Assembly (NCBI GenBank): GCA_013314775.1
Contig: JABUFB010000010.1
Span: 1 to 64,000, forward strand
Length of the DNA: 64,000 nucleotides
Reading direction: 5' to 3'
Origin: Armatimonadota bacterium
GTDB lineage: Bacteria > Armatimonadota > Zipacnadia > Zipacnadales > JABUFB01
The translations under genes and the position numbers were made by a program. Position 1 is the first letter of the stretch. The number at the start of each line of letters is the position of its first letter. Shown here piece after piece: positions 40,826-48,137 of the stretch. The notes beneath the pieces were generated by a model. That model did no database searches. It was given only the letters and a program-made list of their open reading frames with translations, and was not told where the DNA came from.

Positions 40826-41188
40826 GCGCAGGCCATACTGGTGCACTCGGCCTGGCAGGGGCCACCTACGCCTGGGTTCCTGATGGCCTGACAAATCTGG
40901 CACAGAACTGGCCTCCCGACCGCTAAGTGGGGAAGGGGCGTCCAGGGCGAAGTGCGAAGGCATCTGCTCCCCGGGCCCTACACTCCTCACGCCTGGCGCT
41001 ATTCCTTCCCCTCAAGCCGCGGACCTCCTCAGACCTTCACCTTTTCGGGCAGACGCTCAGCCTCTCCGCCCGGGCGAAACCGAATGCCTGCGTCAAGCGA
41101 TTGCGGATTGCTGAACATCGACGGGTATGCTTTCGTCCGTAACGCATCGAAGTCCCGGGTGGGGGCAGGGCCGCACATCACAACGGGG
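40826..41188. other. Divergent intergenic region before the DUF1549 operon
   Basis: About 360 bases if both chosen starts are right; part may encode the N-terminus of the CapK-like protein if its start is at 40990. No clear promoter pair, hairpin or small gene is seen. Confidence 0.35.
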
Positions 41189-42769
41189 ATGCACGCGCAA
41201 ATGATGAGGACCACATTCCTGCCATTTGCTGTGACGCTCTGTTTCCTGTCTTCCCAGGCAATCGACGCCCAGGTCACATACCCTTTCGAACGCAGCGACT
41301 GGCCAATTCCGATGACAGAGCTGGACGAACTGGTCCTGGGTGCCCTCCGCGAGCGGGGCATTGAGCCGGCTAACCCCTGCTCGGACGCCGTCTTTATTCG
41401 CCGCGTCTACCTGGACGTGATCGGCACCCTCCCCGACGCCCAGGAGGTCCGGGTGTTTCTCGGCGACGGATCGGCCGATAAGCGCCGGCGTCTGATAGAG
41501 TCCCTCTTCACCCGCAATGAGTTCGCCGACTACCGTGCGCTGAAGTGGTGTGACATTTTGCGCGTGAAGGCCGAGTTCCCCATCAACTTGTGGCCCAACG
41601 CAGTTCAGGCTTACCACCGGTGGATACACGACGCAGTTCGCACCAACATGCCCTACGACCAGTTCGCCCGGGAGCTTCTGACATCCAGCGGCAGCAACTT
41701 CCGGGTGCCGCAGGTCAACTTCTACCGGGCAATCCAGGGGCGCGACCCGGAAGCAATCGCCCAGGCCGTCGCGCTGACGTTCATGGGCACTCGGCTGAAC
41801 ACATGGCCCGAGGCCGACCGCGCCAATATGCAGGCCTTCTTCTCCAGAATCGCTTACAAGAAAACCGCGGAGTGGAAAGAGGAGATCATCCAGCCTGACC
41901 CGGAGAAGACCGGCGCCTTCAACGCCACGCTCCCGGACGGCACGCGGGTCACCATCGCCGAAGGTCAAGATCCGCGCGTGGTGTTCGCCGACTGGCTCCT
42001 TGCGCCGGATAATGAATGGTTCGCGCGAGCGGTGGTGAACCGCGTCTGGTCGTGGTTCATGGGGCGCGGCATCATCCACGAACCAGACGACATCCGCCCG
42101 GACAACCCCGCGGTCAACCCACAGCTTCTGGCATACCTGGAGAAAGAGTTGGCCGCATCAGGGTACGACCTGCGCCATCTGTACCGAATCATCCTCAATT
42201 CGCGCACTTACCAGCAATCCTGCATCAGCCGCAGCGATGACCCGGACGCGGAGAATCTGTTCGCGTGCTATCCGGTGCGGCGGCTTGATGCGGAGGTGCT
42301 GGTTGACGCCCTCTGCAAACTGGGTGGAGACCGCGAAAGCTACTCCAGCCCGATCCCCGAACCTTTCACGTACATCCCGGAGGAGCAGCGGACCATCGCC
42401 CTGGCCGACGGCAGCATCACCAGCCAGTTTCTGGAGATGTTCGGGCGGCCCGCGCGAGACACCGGGCTGGAATCCGAGCGCAACAACGAGCCGTCCGACG
42501 CCCAGCGCCTACACCTGCTCAACTCTACCGACATCCACCAGAAGGTGACCCGCAGTCCGGTGCTGACGGCGATCCTCATGCAGTCGCGGTGGAACAGGTC
42601 GGCAGTTGTTGACGGCATCTACCTGGCGGTCCTGTCGCGCCATCCGACGCCGACCGAAATGTCCGCGGCGAGTCGGAGGTTTGAGGCACAGGGAATCAAC
42701 ATGCGGCAAGCCGCAGAGGACATCTTCTGGGCGCTCATCAACACCACGGAGTTCCTCTACCGACACTGA
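41189..42769 (+). CDS. DUF1549/DUF1553 domain protein (planctomycete-type PSD1 family)
   Basis: 526 residues from ATG 41189 (ATG 41201 is the alternative), with a signal peptide (MRTTFLPFAVTLCFLSSQAIDA). DUF1549: LDELVLGALRERGIEPANPCSDAVFIRRVYLDVIGTLP. DUF1553: VNRVWSWFMGRGIIHEPDD, YRIILNSRTYQQS, VRRLDAEVLVDALCKL and the terminal INTTEFLYRH. Many relatives carry an N-terminal cytochrome-c (PSCyt1) domain; this one has no CxxCH motif and is correspondingly short. The family is always followed by a DUF1501 partner, as here, and is probably involved in binding or modifying extracellular polymers, though its biochemistry is unknown. Confidence 0.88.
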   Translation: MHAQMMRTTFLPFAVTLCFLSSQAIDAQVTYPFERSDWPIPMTELDELVLGALRERGIEPANPCSDAVFIRRVYLDVIGTLPDAQEVRVFLGDGSADKRRRLIESLFTRNEFADYRALKWCDILRVKAEFPINLWPNAVQAYHRWIHDAVRTNMPYDQFARELLTSSGSNFRVPQVNFYRAIQGRDPEAIAQAVALTFMGTRLNTWPEADRANMQAFFSRIAYKKTAEWKEEIIQPDPEKTGAFNATLPDGTRVTIAEGQDPRVVFADWLLAPDNEWFARAVVNRVWSWFMGRGIIHEPDDIRPDNPAVNPQLLAYLEKELAASGYDLRHLYRIILNSRTYQQSCISRSDDPDAENLFACYPVRRLDAEVLVDALCKLGGDRESYSSPIPEPFTYIPEEQRTIALADGSITSQFLEMFGRPARDTGLESERNNEPSDAQRLHLLNSTDIHQKVTRSPVLTAILMQSRWNRSAVVDGIYLAVLSRHPTPTEMSAASRRFEAQGINMRQAAEDIFWALINTTEFLYRH

Positions 42770-42830
42770 TGGCCGGTTCCCGGGTCGGCCGCGAGGCAGC
42801 CGGCACGAGACAGAACGCGGGAGAGCCAAC

Positions 42831-44153
42831 ATGACCAGGAACCTTTCTAAAGGCGCGATCAGCCGGCGGGAGATGCTCAAACTCGGAGCACTGGGAGCGG
42901 CCGGCCTTGCTCTGGGCGGGCCGCGGAGGGCCTGGGCGCAAGACGGGGCAACTCCAGCGAAGGCCAAGTCGATCATCCAGATCTGGATGTGGGGCGGTCC
43001 GTCGCACCTGGATACATTCGACCCCAAGCCTTCCGCGGGTTATGAGTACTGCGGTTCTCTCGCGAAGGCGATCCCCACAAACGTGGATGGGATCCAGATC
43101 GGGGAGTCCCTGCCGCTGCTTGCCCAGCAGGCGGACAAGTACGCCATCATCCGCAGCATGACCCACGGAATAAACGCCCACGAGACCGCCTCGTATGTCA
43201 TGCAGACGGGCCGCGAGCCCGGTGGTGGGCTGGTCTTCCCCTGCTTGGGAGCGGTGGTCTCGCTCATGAAGGGCTACGACCACGGCTACAAGGGGCTGAT
43301 CCCGCCGTACATTGTGCTCACCGAACCTCAGGGCCGATTCTCTGAGGCGGGCTTTCTCGGGCCAATCTACAAGCCCTTTGCCACCGGGGGAGACCCCAAC
43401 CAGAAGCGTTTCGAGGTGGCCGGTGTTATTGCGGCCGGCGTCAGTGACGAACGGCAGAAGGACCGACGCGAGCTGCTGCATACCCTCGACACTCTCGGTA
43501 AGGCGATGCCCGCCGATCCGCGTTTCGCCAAGCTCCAACAGTGCGAGGAGAAGGCCTATGACCTGATTCTCGGTGACGCCGGGAAGGTCTTCGACCTGTC
43601 CACCGAGACTGACGAATTGCGCGACCGCTACGGTCGGAATACCTTCGGGCAGTCGTGTCTCGCCGCGCGCCGGTTGGTGGAGCTCGGGGTGCCCTACGTG
43701 ACAATCAACTACAAGGGCTGGGACACCCACAAGCAGCATTTCGAGATCATGCGCCGGAAGCTCCCGGAGATGGATCGGGGAATGGCCACGCTCCTGCAGG
43801 ACCTTGCAGACCGGGGCCTGCTGGACAGCACCATCGTGTGGTGGGGGGGCGAATTTGGCCGCACCCCGAGGGTGCAGTGGGAAGCACCCTGGAACGGAGG
43901 CCGAGGACACTACGGCGCCTGCTTCAGCGTTGTGGTTGCGGGCGGAGGGTTCAAAGGGGGGCAGGTTGTTGGCGCTTCGGATGCCACCGGCGAGCACGTC
44001 GCCGAGCGTCCTGTCTACCCGCAGGACCTCCTGGGCAGCATATATCAGCTTATGGGGATCGACCCGGACGGACCGCTGCCGAACCCACGCGGACTGGCCC
44101 TGCCCTTGACCCTCCCTTCGAAGGGCAAGGGACGGCTGACTGAGATCATGTGA
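42831..44153 (+). CDS. DUF1501 protein with Tat signal
   Basis: 440 residues, start ATG 42831. A twin-arginine signal is explicit: SRREMLKLGALGAAGLALGG. The body resembles the alkaline-phosphatase/sulfatase-like DUF1501 family: IQIWMWGGPSHLDTFDPKP near the start, IIRSMTHGINAHET, WDTHKQHFEIM, TIVWWGGEFGRTPRV and GRGHYGACFSVVVAGGG with candidate metal ligands. Tat export suggests the protein folds with a metal cofactor before secretion. It lies 61 nt downstream of its usual DUF1549/DUF1553 partner and 16 nt before the PPC protein. Confidence 0.9.
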   Translation: MTRNLSKGAISRREMLKLGALGAAGLALGGPRRAWAQDGATPAKAKSIIQIWMWGGPSHLDTFDPKPSAGYEYCGSLAKAIPTNVDGIQIGESLPLLAQQADKYAIIRSMTHGINAHETASYVMQTGREPGGGLVFPCLGAVVSLMKGYDHGYKGLIPPYIVLTEPQGRFSEAGFLGPIYKPFATGGDPNQKRFEVAGVIAAGVSDERQKDRRELLHTLDTLGKAMPADPRFAKLQQCEEKAYDLILGDAGKVFDLSTETDELRDRYGRNTFGQSCLAARRLVELGVPYVTINYKGWDTHKQHFEIMRRKLPEMDRGMATLLQDLADRGLLDSTIVWWGGEFGRTPRVQWEAPWNGGRGHYGACFSVVVAGGGFKGGQVVGASDATGEHVAERPVYPQDLLGSIYQLMGIDPDGPLPNPRGLALPLTLPSKGKGRLTEIM

Positions 44154-44169
44154 CGATGGGGGCAGTACA

Positions 44170-46452
44170 ATGCAACGCTTCAGACCTGTGATCCTCGGCG
44201 CGATGGCGCTTTTCGCAGCGCACGCCTGGGGCCAGCCCCCCGGAGGCCCCCCGGGCATCGGATACCTCTACCCCGCTGGTGCGCAGCAAGGGACTACCGT
44301 GCGCGTCACCGCCGGCGGCCAGAACCTGCGCGGCGCAAGCAGCGTCATTGTGGTCGGCACCGGGGTGAGAGTGTCTGTGGTGGAGTACGTCCGGGCACTG
44401 AACAACGGCCAGCTGGGCGACATCGCCAAGCATATCCGGGCGTTGGTGAAGAAACGAATGGCCGAGGCGGGCATCCCCGTTCAGAACCTTCCCCCGCGGC
44501 GAGACGGCACAGAAGATAAGCCGGAAGAGGAACTGCCGGAGCTTCCCGACCACCCGCTGCTGCGCGGATTGGAGACCAAGAGCCTCAAGGAGCTGGACGA
44601 GCTGCGCAGGAAGCTTTTCGACCCAAAACGCCAGCAGAATGCCCAGATCGCCGATCAGGTCATCATGGACGTCACCGTGGATGCCGATGCTCCTCCCGGT
44701 TACCGCGAACTGCGGATCGTTACTGGCGAGGGCCTCACCAACCCGCTGTGGTTCCAGGTCGGCAATGCTCCCGAGGCGCTGGAGCAAGAACCCAATGAAC
44801 CCGGAGCACCTGCCCAGACGGCGCTTGCGCTGCCGGTCGTACTCAACGGCCAGATCATGCCAGGTGACGTGGACCGCTTCCGGTTCTCAGCCCGGGAAGG
44901 GCAGAGACTCGTGATTGAGGCCCAGGCGCGGCGGCTCATCCCCTACCTCGCCGATGCGGTCCCGGGCTGGTTCCAGGCGACATTGGCTCTCTTTGACGCT
45001 GCAGGCAGGGAAGTCGCCTTCACTGACGACTACCGTTTCAACCCCGACCCGGTGATCATGTACGAAGTCCCCCGGGACGGAGAATACTGCGTCGAGATCC
45101 GCGATTCAATCTACCGCGGGCGCGAGGATTTCGTTTACCGAATTAGCTTGGGTGAACACCCGTTCATCACGTCCATTTTCCCGCTGGGCGCACGCGTGGG
45201 GACCCAGACCGTTGTCTCGGCGCAGGGTTGGAACCTCCCGTGGGACAGCGTAGTCCTCGACACCGCGCCGGGCATTGAGACGGTCCGCGTTGGCGCCTGG
45301 CAGTGCGGTGGCGGTGTGTCCAATCCGGTCCCTTACCAGGTGAGTGACCTGCCCGAGATCGAGGAGTCGAGTGCCGCGAACGCCAAACCGCCGTGCATCA
45401 TCAACGGGCGCATCGAAAAGCCCGGCGAACGCGATGCCTTCCGGTTCAACGCGACCAGGGGCGAGACTGTGGTGGTTGAGGTGTACGCGAGACGACTTGG
45501 ATCGCCCCTCGACTCGCTCCTGCGTATCACCAACAATGCGGGCCATGTGCTCGCGCTCAACGATGATCACGAGGACAAGTCCACCGGCCTGATCACCCAT
45601 CATGCCGACTCCCGCGTGAGCTTCACGCCAACGGAAGACGGAACCTATTGCGCCGTCCTGGCCGACGCCCAATCCCACGGTGGCTCGGAGTATGGATACC
45701 GCCTGCACATCGGGCCGCCGAAGCCAAGATTCTCACTGCGTATCGCTCCTGCCAGCGTGACGATCAACGCTGGAAGATCCGCGCCGGTCTGCGTCTACGC
45801 GCTGCGGGAAGACGGTTTTGATGGAGCGATCGACCTGGCGCTGATGGGAGCCCCCCCAGCCCTGACGCTCAGTGGAGGACGCATACCTGCCGGATGTGAC
45901 AGGGTGCGAATGACCCTGGATGCGGCCTTCGAACTTCAGGGAAGCCAGTTCGTCCTTCAGGTTGCTGGCAGCGCGCAAATCGGCGGCAAAATGATTACCG
46001 TGCCTGCAATTCCCAGTCAAGACATGATGCAGGCGTTCGCATACCGTCACCTGGTGCCATCTCAGGCAATGGTCGGGCACGTCAATCCCACGCGCCGGTT
46101 CGCGCCTCCCATTGCGCTGGCTGGCGCGGGACCGCTTCGCATTCCCGCTGGGGGCAATGCCGCCGTGCACGTGATCATTCCCGCCGGGCCCGCTCTGCAG
46201 AGCATTCAGGTTGACCTCAGCGAACCGCCCGATGGGCTTTCGGTGCAGGAGGTCAAGCGGCGGAACAACGGGCTCGAACTCGTAGTCAGGGCGGATGGCG
46301 AGAAGCTGAAGACAGGTACGACAGGCAACCTGATCCTCGAGGCCTTCGCCGAAGTGGAGTTGCAGGCCCCCGGCGGCCAAGGCAAGAAGCAGAAACGCCG
46401 CTTTTCTCTGGGCTACCTGCCGGCGGTGCCCTTCGAGGTCACCGGCGGATAG
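44170..46452 (+). CDS. Secreted protein with two PPC (pre-peptidase C-terminal) domains
   Basis: 760 residues. A signal peptide (PVILGAMALFAAHAWG) is followed by a PPGGPPG linker and IPT/TIG-like beta domains (YLYPAGAQQGTTVRVTAGGQNLRG; HPFITSIFPLGARVGTQTVVSAQG). Two PPC domains follow the pattern EQEPNEPGAPA ... LNGQIMPGDVDRFRFSAREGQ and INGRIEKPGERDAFRFNATRG, each about 100 residues. The C-terminus is beta-rich and ends with a Lys/Arg-rich loop. No catalytic centre is seen. As third gene of the DUF1549-DUF1501-PPC operon it probably helps the complex bind polymer at the cell surface. Confidence 0.85.
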   Translation: MQRFRPVILGAMALFAAHAWGQPPGGPPGIGYLYPAGAQQGTTVRVTAGGQNLRGASSVIVVGTGVRVSVVEYVRALNNGQLGDIAKHIRALVKKRMAEAGIPVQNLPPRRDGTEDKPEEELPELPDHPLLRGLETKSLKELDELRRKLFDPKRQQNAQIADQVIMDVTVDADAPPGYRELRIVTGEGLTNPLWFQVGNAPEALEQEPNEPGAPAQTALALPVVLNGQIMPGDVDRFRFSAREGQRLVIEAQARRLIPYLADAVPGWFQATLALFDAAGREVAFTDDYRFNPDPVIMYEVPRDGEYCVEIRDSIYRGREDFVYRISLGEHPFITSIFPLGARVGTQTVVSAQGWNLPWDSVVLDTAPGIETVRVGAWQCGGGVSNPVPYQVSDLPEIEESSAANAKPPCIINGRIEKPGERDAFRFNATRGETVVVEVYARRLGSPLDSLLRITNNAGHVLALNDDHEDKSTGLITHHADSRVSFTPTEDGTYCAVLADAQSHGGSEYGYRLHIGPPKPRFSLRIAPASVTINAGRSAPVCVYALREDGFDGAIDLALMGAPPALTLSGGRIPAGCDRVRMTLDAAFELQGSQFVLQVAGSAQIGGKMITVPAIPSQDMMQAFAYRHLVPSQAMVGHVNPTRRFAPPIALAGAGPLRIPAGGNAAVHVIIPAGPALQSIQVDLSEPPDGLSVQEVKRRNNGLELVVRADGEKLKTGTTGNLILEAFAEVELQAPGGQGKKQKRRFSLGYLPAVPFEVTGG

Positions 46453-46692: not shown

Positions 46693-46736
46693 TTGACTCG
46701 GAACCTCATTTGTGCTATATATGTTTTAGACATATA
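46693..46736 (+). promoter_or_regulatory. Promoter and palindromic operator of the DUF5320/NifX operon
   Basis: TTGACT (46693-46698), 17-nt spacer, TATATA (46716-46721) with TG one base before it. Over the -10 and start point lies a perfect inverted repeat TATATGT-TTTAG-ACATATA (46718-46724 and 46730-46736). AT-rich sequence stands out sharply from the GC-rich surroundings. The position fits repression by a dimeric regulator, which is not encoded nearby. Confidence 0.7.
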
Positions 46737-46767: not shown

Positions 46768-47046
46768 ATGAGAAACCGCAATATGTACTACGCAACCGGG
46801 TTGCCTGGCTGGTTGAGGTTTGGCTACAGCCCCGGGTGGGGCGGCATGCCTCCGTGCGCCCCGTACTTCATGGGGCAGTCAGCAGCTCAGTCGTGGCCTG
46901 TGCAGATGCCGATGGCAGGCCTGGGCTTCTCGCCGGTGGAAGCAGAGCGCAACATGATCGCGATGCAGCTCGAGGCCATCGCGGATCAACTGGCCTTCAT
47001 CGCGGACAGGCTGGATGCACTGGACAAGGTTGAACAGGACGAGTGA
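46768..47046 (+). CDS. Small DUF5320-like protein (C-terminal half type)
   Basis: 92 residues from ATG 46768 with GGAGGTG 5-6 nt upstream. The N-terminal part (NMYYATGLPGWLRFGYSPGW) matches what I recall of the middle of DUF5320 proteins, and the C-terminal part (EAERNMIAMQLEAIADQL, then FIADRLDALDKVEQ) matches their short terminal coiled coil. The Met/Gly-rich start usual in that family is missing here but is encoded separately by the third gene of the operon. It probably forms a helical oligomer or docks to the NifX-type protein encoded next. Function unknown. Confidence 0.7.
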   Translation: MRNRNMYYATGLPGWLRFGYSPGWGGMPPCAPYFMGQSAAQSWPVQMPMAGLGFSPVEAERNMIAMQLEAIADQLAFIADRLDALDKVEQDE

Positions 47047-47095
47047 GCGATGCGGGGCCGCAACACGACTGGTCCCGAGAGAGGACGGTAAAACC

Positions 47096-47731
47096 ATGAA
47101 AATCGCAGTATCAGCCACAGGAGACAATCTGGAAGCAGCGTCAGATCCGCGTTTCGGACGATGCCGTTACTTCGTGCTCGTGGACAGTGACACGCTGCAG
47201 TTCGAGGCGCTGGAGAACACGGCGGCGGCGCAGGGGTCGGGCGCGGGAATTGCGGCCGCCCAGATGGTGGCCGACGCAGGCGCGGAAGCAGTCATCGCCG
47301 GGAACTACGGCCCCAACGCTTTCACGGCGCTGTCGCAAGGCGGGATTCAGCTGTACTCCTGGTCCGGCGGGTCTGTCCGTCAGGCGATCGACGCCTACAA
47401 GGCCGGGCAGCTGGAGCCGGTTGGGGCCGCAACCACGGCGGCGAAGTCCGGCATGGGCGGCGCACCGGGGATCGGGCAGCCCGGCGGCGGTATGGGCATG
47501 GGCGGAGGACGTGGCATGGGCGGAGGGCGTGGCATGGGCGGGGGACGTGGCATGGGCGGAGGCATGGGCGGAGGCATGGGCCGCGGCGGCGCGGGTGGAG
47601 GCGGACGCAGGCGGTTCTCCTCACCCGGTGAAGAGCCCGCTGGAATAGACGCTCTGCGCAACACTGTTCGGACGCTACAGGAGCAGGTCTCCGAACTGAG
47701 CCGGCGGCTGCCCGGCCGCTCGAACAACTGA
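47096..47731 (+). CDS. Dinitrogenase iron-molybdenum cofactor-binding (NifX/NafY-type) protein with Gly-Met-Arg repeat
   Basis: 211 residues. Residues 1-105 are the NifX/NafY/NifB C-terminal-type fold: MKIAVSATGDNLEAASDPRFGRCRYF, FEALENTAAAQGSGAGIAAAQ and AVIAGNYGPNAF, which bind metal-sulfur clusters in characterised relatives. From Gly134 a tandem repeat encodes (GMGGGR)3 and (GMGG)2, with 18-bp and 12-bp DNA units at 47495-47572. The last 30 residues form a coiled coil (IDALRNTVRTLQEQVSELSR). No nitrogenase gene is present; such stand-alone proteins occur widely with DUF5320 partners. Its role may be metal or cluster carriage. Start ATG 47096. Confidence 0.85.
   Translation: MKIAVSATGDNLEAASDPRFGRCRYFVLVDSDTLQFEALENTAAAQGSGAGIAAAQMVADAGAEAVIAGNYGPNAFTALSQGGIQLYSWSGGSVRQAIDAYKAGQLEPVGAATTAAKSGMGGAPGIGQPGGGMGMGGGRGMGGGRGMGGGRGMGGGMGGGMGRGGAGGGGRRRFSSPGEEPAGIDALRNTVRTLQEQVSELSRRLPGRSNN
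47495..47572 (+). repeat. In-frame tandem repeat (18-bp and 12-bp units)
   Basis: Three 18-bp units (GGCATGGGCGGAGGACGT and near copies) followed by two 12-bp units (GGCATGGGCGGA), in frame with the NifX-type gene. Copy number could change by slippage without breaking the frame. Confidence 0.85.
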
Positions 47732-47797
47732 ACAACACAAACTCCCGCTGCCAACCGCAACGGGAATGCAATCATGAAAGAACGGAGGTGCGTAACA

Positions 47798-48052
47798 ATG
47801 CCAGGATTCGATGGCACTGGACCGCGTGGAATGGGACCGATGACCGGTGGCGGCCGGGGTTTCTGTACCGGTTATGCCCAGTCAATGGGCTATCCCAGGT
47901 ACCCCGTCTATGGCGGGTACCCGATCGCGCCCGGTATGATGCCCAACACCATGCTTCCGAACCCATATCTCCGCCGCGGATTGGGCCTTGGGCCCTGCGG
48001 GATGGGCATGGCCTGGGGCCGCGGCCGCGGTATGGGTCGCGGGCGCTGGTAG
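47798..48052 (+). CDS. Small Met/Gly-rich DUF5320-like protein (N-terminal half type)
   Basis: 84 residues from ATG 47798 with GGAGGTG 7 nt upstream; the ATG at 47774 lacks a ribosome site. It begins PGFDGTGPRGMGPMTGGG, then GRGFCTGYAQSMG, the hallmark start of DUF5320 proteins, and ends in a Gly/Arg run (GRGRGMGRGRW). The coiled-coil half of that family is absent here and is found in the first gene of the operon. Two cysteines and many methionines could bind soft metals. A strong terminator follows. Confidence 0.75.
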   Translation: MPGFDGTGPRGMGPMTGGGRGFCTGYAQSMGYPRYPVYGGYPIAPGMMPNTMLPNPYLRRGLGLGPCGMGMAWGRGRGMGRGRW

Positions 48053-48096: not shown

Positions 48097-48137
48097 GGGG
48101 CGCTCGCGGGTAAAACGAGCGCCCCTTCTTCTTCTGT
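48097..48137 (+). terminator. Intrinsic terminator of the DUF5320/NifX operon
   Basis: Perfect 10-bp GC-rich stem GGGGCGCTCG / CGAGCGCCCC (48097-48106 and 48116-48125) with a 9-nt loop, followed by the pyrimidine tail TTCTTCTTCTGTT. It lies 44 nt after the last stop codon. Confidence 0.85.

What the first reader, a model, noticed from the sequence alone, without database searches (positions are those of the whole stretch)
46768..48052. DUF5320 protein split in two around a NifX-type gene
As I recall the family, one DUF5320 protein carries the DGTGPRGMGPMTG start, a YYATGLPGW middle and a coiled-coil end. Here the start is encoded by the third gene and the middle plus coiled coil by the first, in reversed order, with a NifX/NafY-type protein between. 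The stand-alone metal-cluster system may assemble from three small proteins.
Basis: partly seen in the sequence, partly recalled or inferred. Interest (0 to 1): 0.6.

Follow-up and report, generated by a model that had tools for sequence, protein, structure and literature searches.

The report
Split DUF5320 modules in orange-protein-like operon
Three small neighbouring genes in an uncultured anaerobic Armatimonadota bacterium look like the displaced part of a metal-sulfide (orange-protein-like) system, whose other part lies elsewhere in the genome and carries the same DNA switch; two of the genes match the two ends of a protein family that is sometimes made as one piece.

Summary
The three genes are real. 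Gene 3 (N, 47798-48052) is DUF5320, matching only the front of the model. Gene 1 (A, 46768-47046) has no Pfam hit, but its family aligns to the back half of full-length DUF5320 relatives (hhalign 99.5%). Gene 2 (X) is a NifX-fold protein closest to orange protein (ORP), with a glycine/arginine linker and a C-terminal helix, as in IssA/IssX.

The 'split around' and 'reversed order' readings are weak. A is an old, widespread stand-alone family whose regular neighbour is X, often without N; N also occurs without A; full-length forms and adjacent N-A gene pairs both exist. A-X-N is the gene order of the relatives' larger operon minus the ATPases.

It is probably not stand-alone. The genome encodes both ferredoxin-MinD ATPases, PadR and a hydrolase at another locus, and a palindrome TATATGT-N5-ACATATA occurs exactly twice in 6.1 Mb: in front of that operon and in front of A-X-N.

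Best explanation: a dispersed, PadR-controlled ORP/IssX-type metal-sulfide system. A shared coiled-coil assembly is plausible but unproven; the window's own A and X tails are not alike.

The parts
46718..46736 (.). palindrome TATATGTTTTAGACATATA, proposed PadR operator
   Evidence: exact match to TATATGTN5ACATATA; only two exact sites in the 6.12-Mb genome, the other before the PadR-MBL-ATPase-ATPase operon at C9:144322
46768..47046 (+). gene A: stand-alone relative of the back half of DUF5320 (RNMYYATGLPGW module plus C-terminal helix), 92 aa
   Evidence: hhalign of its family to full-length DUF5320 99.5%, E 3e-22; helix 56-91 at high pLDDT, rest low confidence
47096..47731 (+). gene X: ORP/NifX-fold protein with Gly/Arg/Met linker and C-terminal helix, 211 aa
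   Evidence: PF02579 6.7e-22; Foldseek best hit ORP 2wfb TM 0.92; linker residues 112-177 pI 12.0, 52% Gly; helix 184-208
47495..47562 (+). 18-bp tandem repeat coding GMGGGR units in the linker of X
   Evidence: Tandem Repeats Finder 3.8 copies, 92% match
47798..48052 (+). gene N: front half of DUF5320 (MPGFDGTGPRGMGPMTG...GFC) with a GRGRGMGRGRW tail, 84 aa
   Evidence: PF17253 30.7 bits over cut-off 27, model 1-54/99; pI 10.6, net +8
48097..48125 (+). intrinsic terminator: 10-bp GC stem, 9-nt loop, then TTCTTCTTCTGTT
   Evidence: RNA fold -28.7 kcal/mol, z -3.5; loop too long for the consensus scan

Best explanation
A-X-N is the detached accessory/scaffold part of an orange-protein-type (ORP) metal-sulfide system of an anaerobic Zipacnadia bacterium. 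X folds like ORP, and its globular domain would hold an anionic metal-sulfide cluster or chain that its cationic Gly/Arg/Met linker wraps, as proposed for IssA/IssX. A would join X through the C-terminal helices; N, a small cationic Gly/Tyr/Met/Arg protein, would be an additional binding or assembly subunit. The two MinD-type ATPases with paired 4Fe-4S motifs at C9 (Orp3/Orp4-like) would supply or move clusters. One PadR repressor encoded at C9 would control both loci through the shared palindrome. Shown by sequence: gene identities, predicted fold of X, operon boundaries, the two exact sites, the neighbours in relatives. Inferred: binding of PadR, metal-sulfide binding, physical assembly. A and N are separable modules that can also occur as one DUF5320 chain; they are not two obligate halves.
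For: Fold of X nearest ORP and sequence hits TM1290, MTH1175, ORP. Relatives' operons hold PadR, small NifX, MBL-fold protein, A, X, ATPase, N, ATPase in order. Both ATPases with PadR and MBL in the same genome. Palindrome: two exact sites in the genome, both at these operons; 14 exact sites in 13 of 46 genomes (own included), none for the reversed control, 13 of 14 at PadR/ORP-type operons. A has a NifX-domain gene within 600 bp on the same strand in 81 of 87 loci from archaea and bacteria; a Gly-rich X lies within 1.1 kb in all 72 loci where one was found. A and X tails are more alike within a locus than between loci of the same broad group (67.9 against 62.7, sd 1.1), and the tail of the A profile matches the X gene in G299. 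ORP complex biochemistry and Fe-S transfer: PMC6345978; IssA tail model: PMC5524996. Zipacnadia are predicted anaerobes with sulfite reductase (PMC10290634).
Against: No metal-ligand set is proven; N and A have two and one Cys, and that of A is not invariant in its family. The window's own A and X tails score 23, no better than shuffled sequence (25), so their pairing rests on relatives; the tail effect is near zero within the archaeal and Bipolaricaulota groups. A is absent from most Thermococci (found in 3 of 81 genomes), so the class of the IssA organism mostly lacks it. The linker of X has only 2% aromatic residues, unlike P. furiosus IssA. PadR sites described elsewhere have 8-10 nt spacers (PMC3506622), here 5. 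No expression data.
Confidence: 0.6

Rival explanations
1. A true local fission: a full-length DUF5320 gene was broken in this lineage, its two parts rearranged around X, and they must re-associate to work.
For: Full-length forms with the same motif exist in the phylum; adjacent N-then-A gene pairs that look like split full-length genes occur in Halobacteriota (L245-L251) and N-A neighbours in L077, L093, L128.
Against: A of the window has the SPGW...P..A.Y...G extension of the widespread stand-alone family, lacking in the full-length forms inspected; A-X-N order is shared by other families of the class; either half occurs without the other.
Confidence: 0.12
2. An IssA-like iron-sulfur storage operon: X, with A and N as helpers, forms thioferrate particles and does not depend on the ATPases.
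For: X has the IPR003731-type domain and a high-pI glycine tail as described for IssA and IssX (PMC5524996); N is cationic, glycine-rich and partly aromatic; A-X-N stands apart from the ATPases.
Against: The ATPases are present behind the same palindrome; A is missing in most of 81 Thermococci genomes; few aromatics in the linker; the nearest fold is ORP.
Confidence: 0.2
3. A nitrogenase cofactor-handling set (NifX/NafY in the strict sense).
For: Shared PF02579 domain.
Against: Structural and sequence neighbours are ORP, TM1290 and MTH1175; NafY and NifX rank far lower; relatives' operons carry PadR and MinD-ferredoxin ATPases, and no nif genes were seen in those inspected. The genome was not searched for nifHDK.
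Confidence: 0.04

Closest known systems
Orange protein (ORP) complex of Desulfovibrio (Orp3, Orp4, Orp5, Orp8, Orp9/MrpORP; PMC6345978, PMC3897727)
   Same: ORP-fold protein (X, best hit 2wfb) and two related MinD-type ATPases each with two 4Fe-4S motifs, in an anaerobe.
   Different: No fused MrpORP: both PF02579 proteins over the cut-off in the genome are small forms without a P-loop domain. Control appears to be PadR with a palindrome, whereas the Desulfovibrio operons use sigma-54, DVU2106 and IHF. The system is spread over three loci; whether any of the five ORP proteins resembles A or N was not tested.
IssA / IssX thioferrate-type proteins (Pyrococcus furiosus PF2025; PMC5524996)
   Same: IPR003731-type globular domain plus glycine-rich cationic tail of high pI.
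   Different: Linker poor in aromatics, extra C-terminal helix, companions A and N; A is absent from most Thermococci genomes searched.
Pfam DUF5320 (PF17253)
   Same: N passes its cut-off; the A family aligns to the back half of full-length members.
   Different: Two genes with X between; A carries a conserved extension and P0001 itself is not recognised by Pfam.

Membership tests
DUF5320 PF17253 (gene N) | passes the Pfam gathering score | tested here: met
   30.7 bits against 27, model positions 1-54 of 99
DUF5320 PF17253 (gene A) | passes the Pfam gathering score | tested here: not met
   P0001: no Pfam family at E 1 or 10; 13 of 15 family members hit the model, best 2.6e-7; homology by profile only
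Nitro_FeMo-Co PF02579 (gene X) | passes the Pfam gathering score | tested here: met
   78 bits against 26.3
ORP system | ORP/NifX-fold protein | tested here: met
   Foldseek best hit 2wfb, TM-score 0.92 on the target
ORP system | two MinD-type ATPases each with two 4Fe-4S motifs | tested here: met
   adjacent genes at C9:145698 onward; CbiA/ParA plus Fer4 domains
ORP system | fused MrpORP (P-loop plus NifX domain) | tested here: not met
   both PF02579 matches over the cut-off in the genome are proteins of 211 and 109 aa without a P-loop domain
ORP system | Mo-Cu sulfide or Fe-S cluster bound | not testable with these tools
   needs anoxic purification and metal analysis
IssA/IssX | glycine-rich, high-pI C-terminal tail | tested here: met
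   linker 112-177: 52% Gly, pI 12.0, net +8
IssA (P. furiosus type) | aromatic-rich tail | tested here: not met
   2% aromatic in the linker against 14 of 70 in IssA (PMC5524996)
PadR regulon | PadR gene behind the same palindrome | tested here: met
   PF03551 1.1e-18 at C9; exact site at its start
PadR regulon | ATGT/ACAT inverted repeat with 8-10 nt spacer | tested here: not met
   ATGT/ACAT present but the spacer is 5 nt (PMC3506622)

The most novel reading that the evidence does not exclude
A, X and N belong to an undescribed modular kit for building metal-sulfide assemblies. A few short modules (the MPGxDGTGP tag, the RNMYYATGLPGW module, the ORP-fold scaffold, Gly/Arg tails and a shared C-terminal coiled coil) are recombined among operon proteins, and Pfam DUF5320 is one fused combination of them.
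Probability: 0.3. Interest if true: 0.7.

Novelty: new variant of a known kind. Interest (0 to 1): 0.45.

Why it matters
DUF5320 has no known function; only two papers of the library searched mention it, each once and not in title or abstract. The data here tie its two ends to ORP-type proteins and Fe-S ATPases from archaea to bacteria, define an unnamed companion family (A) that regularly neighbours the NifX-fold gene, and give a concrete presumptive regulon (two sites, one repressor) in an anaerobic class. What ORP and IssX proteins do is an open question that this gene set makes testable.

Tried and rejected
Pfam, NCBIfam and PHROGs with P0001: no family. A in plasmids: none. A against the PDB: no match to its motif, mostly weak coiled-coil hits. 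Rejected: that A and X tails match in the window itself (score 23, null 25). Rejected: that model coverage alone means a fused protein with the motif; several full-length DUF5320 matches in Armatimonadota and Bipolaricaulota lack ATGLPGW. The promoter scan gave only a weak hit overlapping the palindrome; by eye TTGACT-17-TATATA (46693-46721) overlaps the palindrome, kept as a suggestion only. The key 2011 ORP operon paper is not held. Searches of other phyla with locus handles as centre failed and were repeated with genome handles.

Full report
Observation. The window holds three small genes in a row on the + strand: A (46768-47046, 92 aa), X (47096-47731, 211 aa) and N (47798-48052, 84 aa). 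The unit starts with a 19-bp palindrome at 46718-46736 and ends with a strong hairpin terminator at 48097-48125. N is DUF5320 by Pfam but matches only the front of the model; X is PF02579; A hits nothing. A and N do correspond to the two ends of DUF5320.

Where the window comes from. The class is therefore Zipacnadia of the Armatimonadota, described as anaerobic and as carrying a predicted sulfite reductase (PMC10290634).

Is it one protein split in two? Mostly no. (1) A is a family of its own. A scan of genomes of 84,980 species found 227 relatives of A; the best 80, from ANME-1 and Methanosarcinales archaea, Bipolaricaulota, Omnitrophota, Actinomycetota, Chloroflexota, Poribacteria and others, showed no N motif in the same reading frame (one, L102, escaped the pattern used). 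The start RNMYYxTGLPGWMRFGYSPGW and the following P..A.Y...G are conserved from archaea to bacteria, while the full-length proteins inspected lack the SPGW extension. The 80 are the best matches to a stand-alone query, so this sample leans towards stand-alone forms. (2) Genome-wide, 30 genomes with stand-alone A gave a full-length or front-half match in only five (mostly draft genomes, so a lower bound). (3) In Armatimonadota, N without A occurs in the operons of G022, G019, G028, G006 and G020, A without N in G043, G044 and G045, and both in about ten genomes. (4) Full-length matches occur in about 20 of 291 genomes of the phylum, in two of them (G010, G036) beside split genes; of those inspected, six carry the ATGLP or ATGQP motif. 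(5) In Halobacteriota about 9 of 197 genomes have adjacent N-then-A pairs that do look like a split DUF5320 (examples in L245-L251), and about 12 have full-length matches. Front and back are therefore separable modules that are joined in some lineages. Counts in (3)-(5) were made by hand from the printed tables.

Why the order is 'reversed'. The relatives' larger operon reads PadR, small NifX (CxH end), MBL-fold hydrolase, A, X, ferredoxin-MinD ATPase, N, second ATPase. A-X-N in the window is this order with the ATPase missing. In the same-family genome G002, A-X-N is followed by the same convergent DUF2961-like gene as in the window (85% identical), so the move is at least as old as the family.

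It is probably not stand-alone. A search of the window's own genome found both ATPases as neighbours at C9:145698 onward, behind a PadR gene and the MBL-fold gene, and the small NifX at C5:57401. The palindrome TATATGT-N5-ACATATA has exactly two exact sites in 6.12 Mb: C10:46718 before A and C9:144322 at the PadR gene. In 46 genomes of the class (own included) there are 14 exact sites in 13 genomes and none for the reversed control; 13 of the 14 sit at PadR/ORP-type operons and one beside an ArsR-permease set. This ties the two loci into one presumptive regulon. The half-sites ATGT/ACAT are those known for PadR proteins, but the spacer is 5 instead of 8-10 nt (PMC3506622), and binding is untested.

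What X is. AlphaFold2 gives a confident NifX fold (1-110), a disordered linker and a helix at 184-208. Foldseek ranks orange protein 2wfb first (TM-score 0.92 on the target, rmsd 0.8), ahead of TM1290, MTH1175 and, far below, NafY and NifX. The linker is 52% Gly with pI 12 and is coded in part by an 18-bp tandem repeat. This is the build described for IssA and, more closely, the uncharacterised IssX group: a globular domain plus a cationic glycine tail proposed to wrap anionic thioferrate (PMC5524996). Orp8 of Desulfovibrio carries a Mo-Cu sulfide and works in a complex with Orp3 and Orp4 (PMC6345978).

How the parts may join. A is predicted as a low-confidence N-terminal stretch plus one confident helix 56-91. 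A's nearest same-strand NifX-domain gene is within 600 bp in 81 of 87 loci. C-terminal tails of A and X are more alike within a locus than after shuffling partners inside broad groups (67.9 against 62.7, sd 1.1, none of 5000 shuffles), with near-identity in L077 and L041. Limits: the groups are broad, base composition is not controlled, the effect is carried by Armatimonadota and mixed other phyla and is near zero in archaea and Bipolaricaulota, and the window pair itself shows none (23 against a null of 25). The small ferredoxin next to A in ANME-1 and an extra N in G002 end in similar helices by eye. Assembly is thus an inference from relatives.

Verdict. Observation confirmed. Interpretation partly supported: the family assignment holds; split-and-reversed, stand-alone and NafY-type do not. 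Best reading: the displaced, co-regulated scaffold part of an ORP/IssX-type metal-sulfide system. Metal identity, direction of fusion and physical assembly remain open.

Noticed in passing
L045:9450-9680, L128:3144-3416: The DUF5320 front motif (MPRGDGTGPxGxGPxTG) also heads a small zinc-ribbon-like protein in the same operons, so the tag travels between proteins.
   Followed up: partly
L040:10264-10584 (G002, same family): A second N gene with a C-terminal coiled coil close to that of the neighbouring X (DEIQALREQMNALQQQVQGLAQMLED against DEVQALRGQVSALQQQVQSLMKMLED).
   Followed up: partly
L067:10413-10727 and similar ANME-1 loci: A small 2x[4Fe-4S] ferredoxin with a coiled-coil-like tail sits directly after A.
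   Followed up: no
G011:C72:1529 (L195): The only exact palindrome not at an ORP-type operon lies upstream of an ArsR-permease-thioredoxin-like gene set.
   Followed up: partly
L056:7798-10210 (G000:C5): The small CxH NifX of this genome sits beside a transposase-like gene and a radical SAM gene, away from its usual operon.
   Followed up: partly
L193 (same-genus genome G001:C394): PadR-MBL-ATPase-ATPase operon with the palindrome, but no A found in that 85% complete genome.
   Followed up: partly
window 40952-46452: By eye, a planctomycete-like DUF1549/DUF1553, DUF1501 and pre-peptidase-domain gene set lies directly upstream.
   Followed up: no
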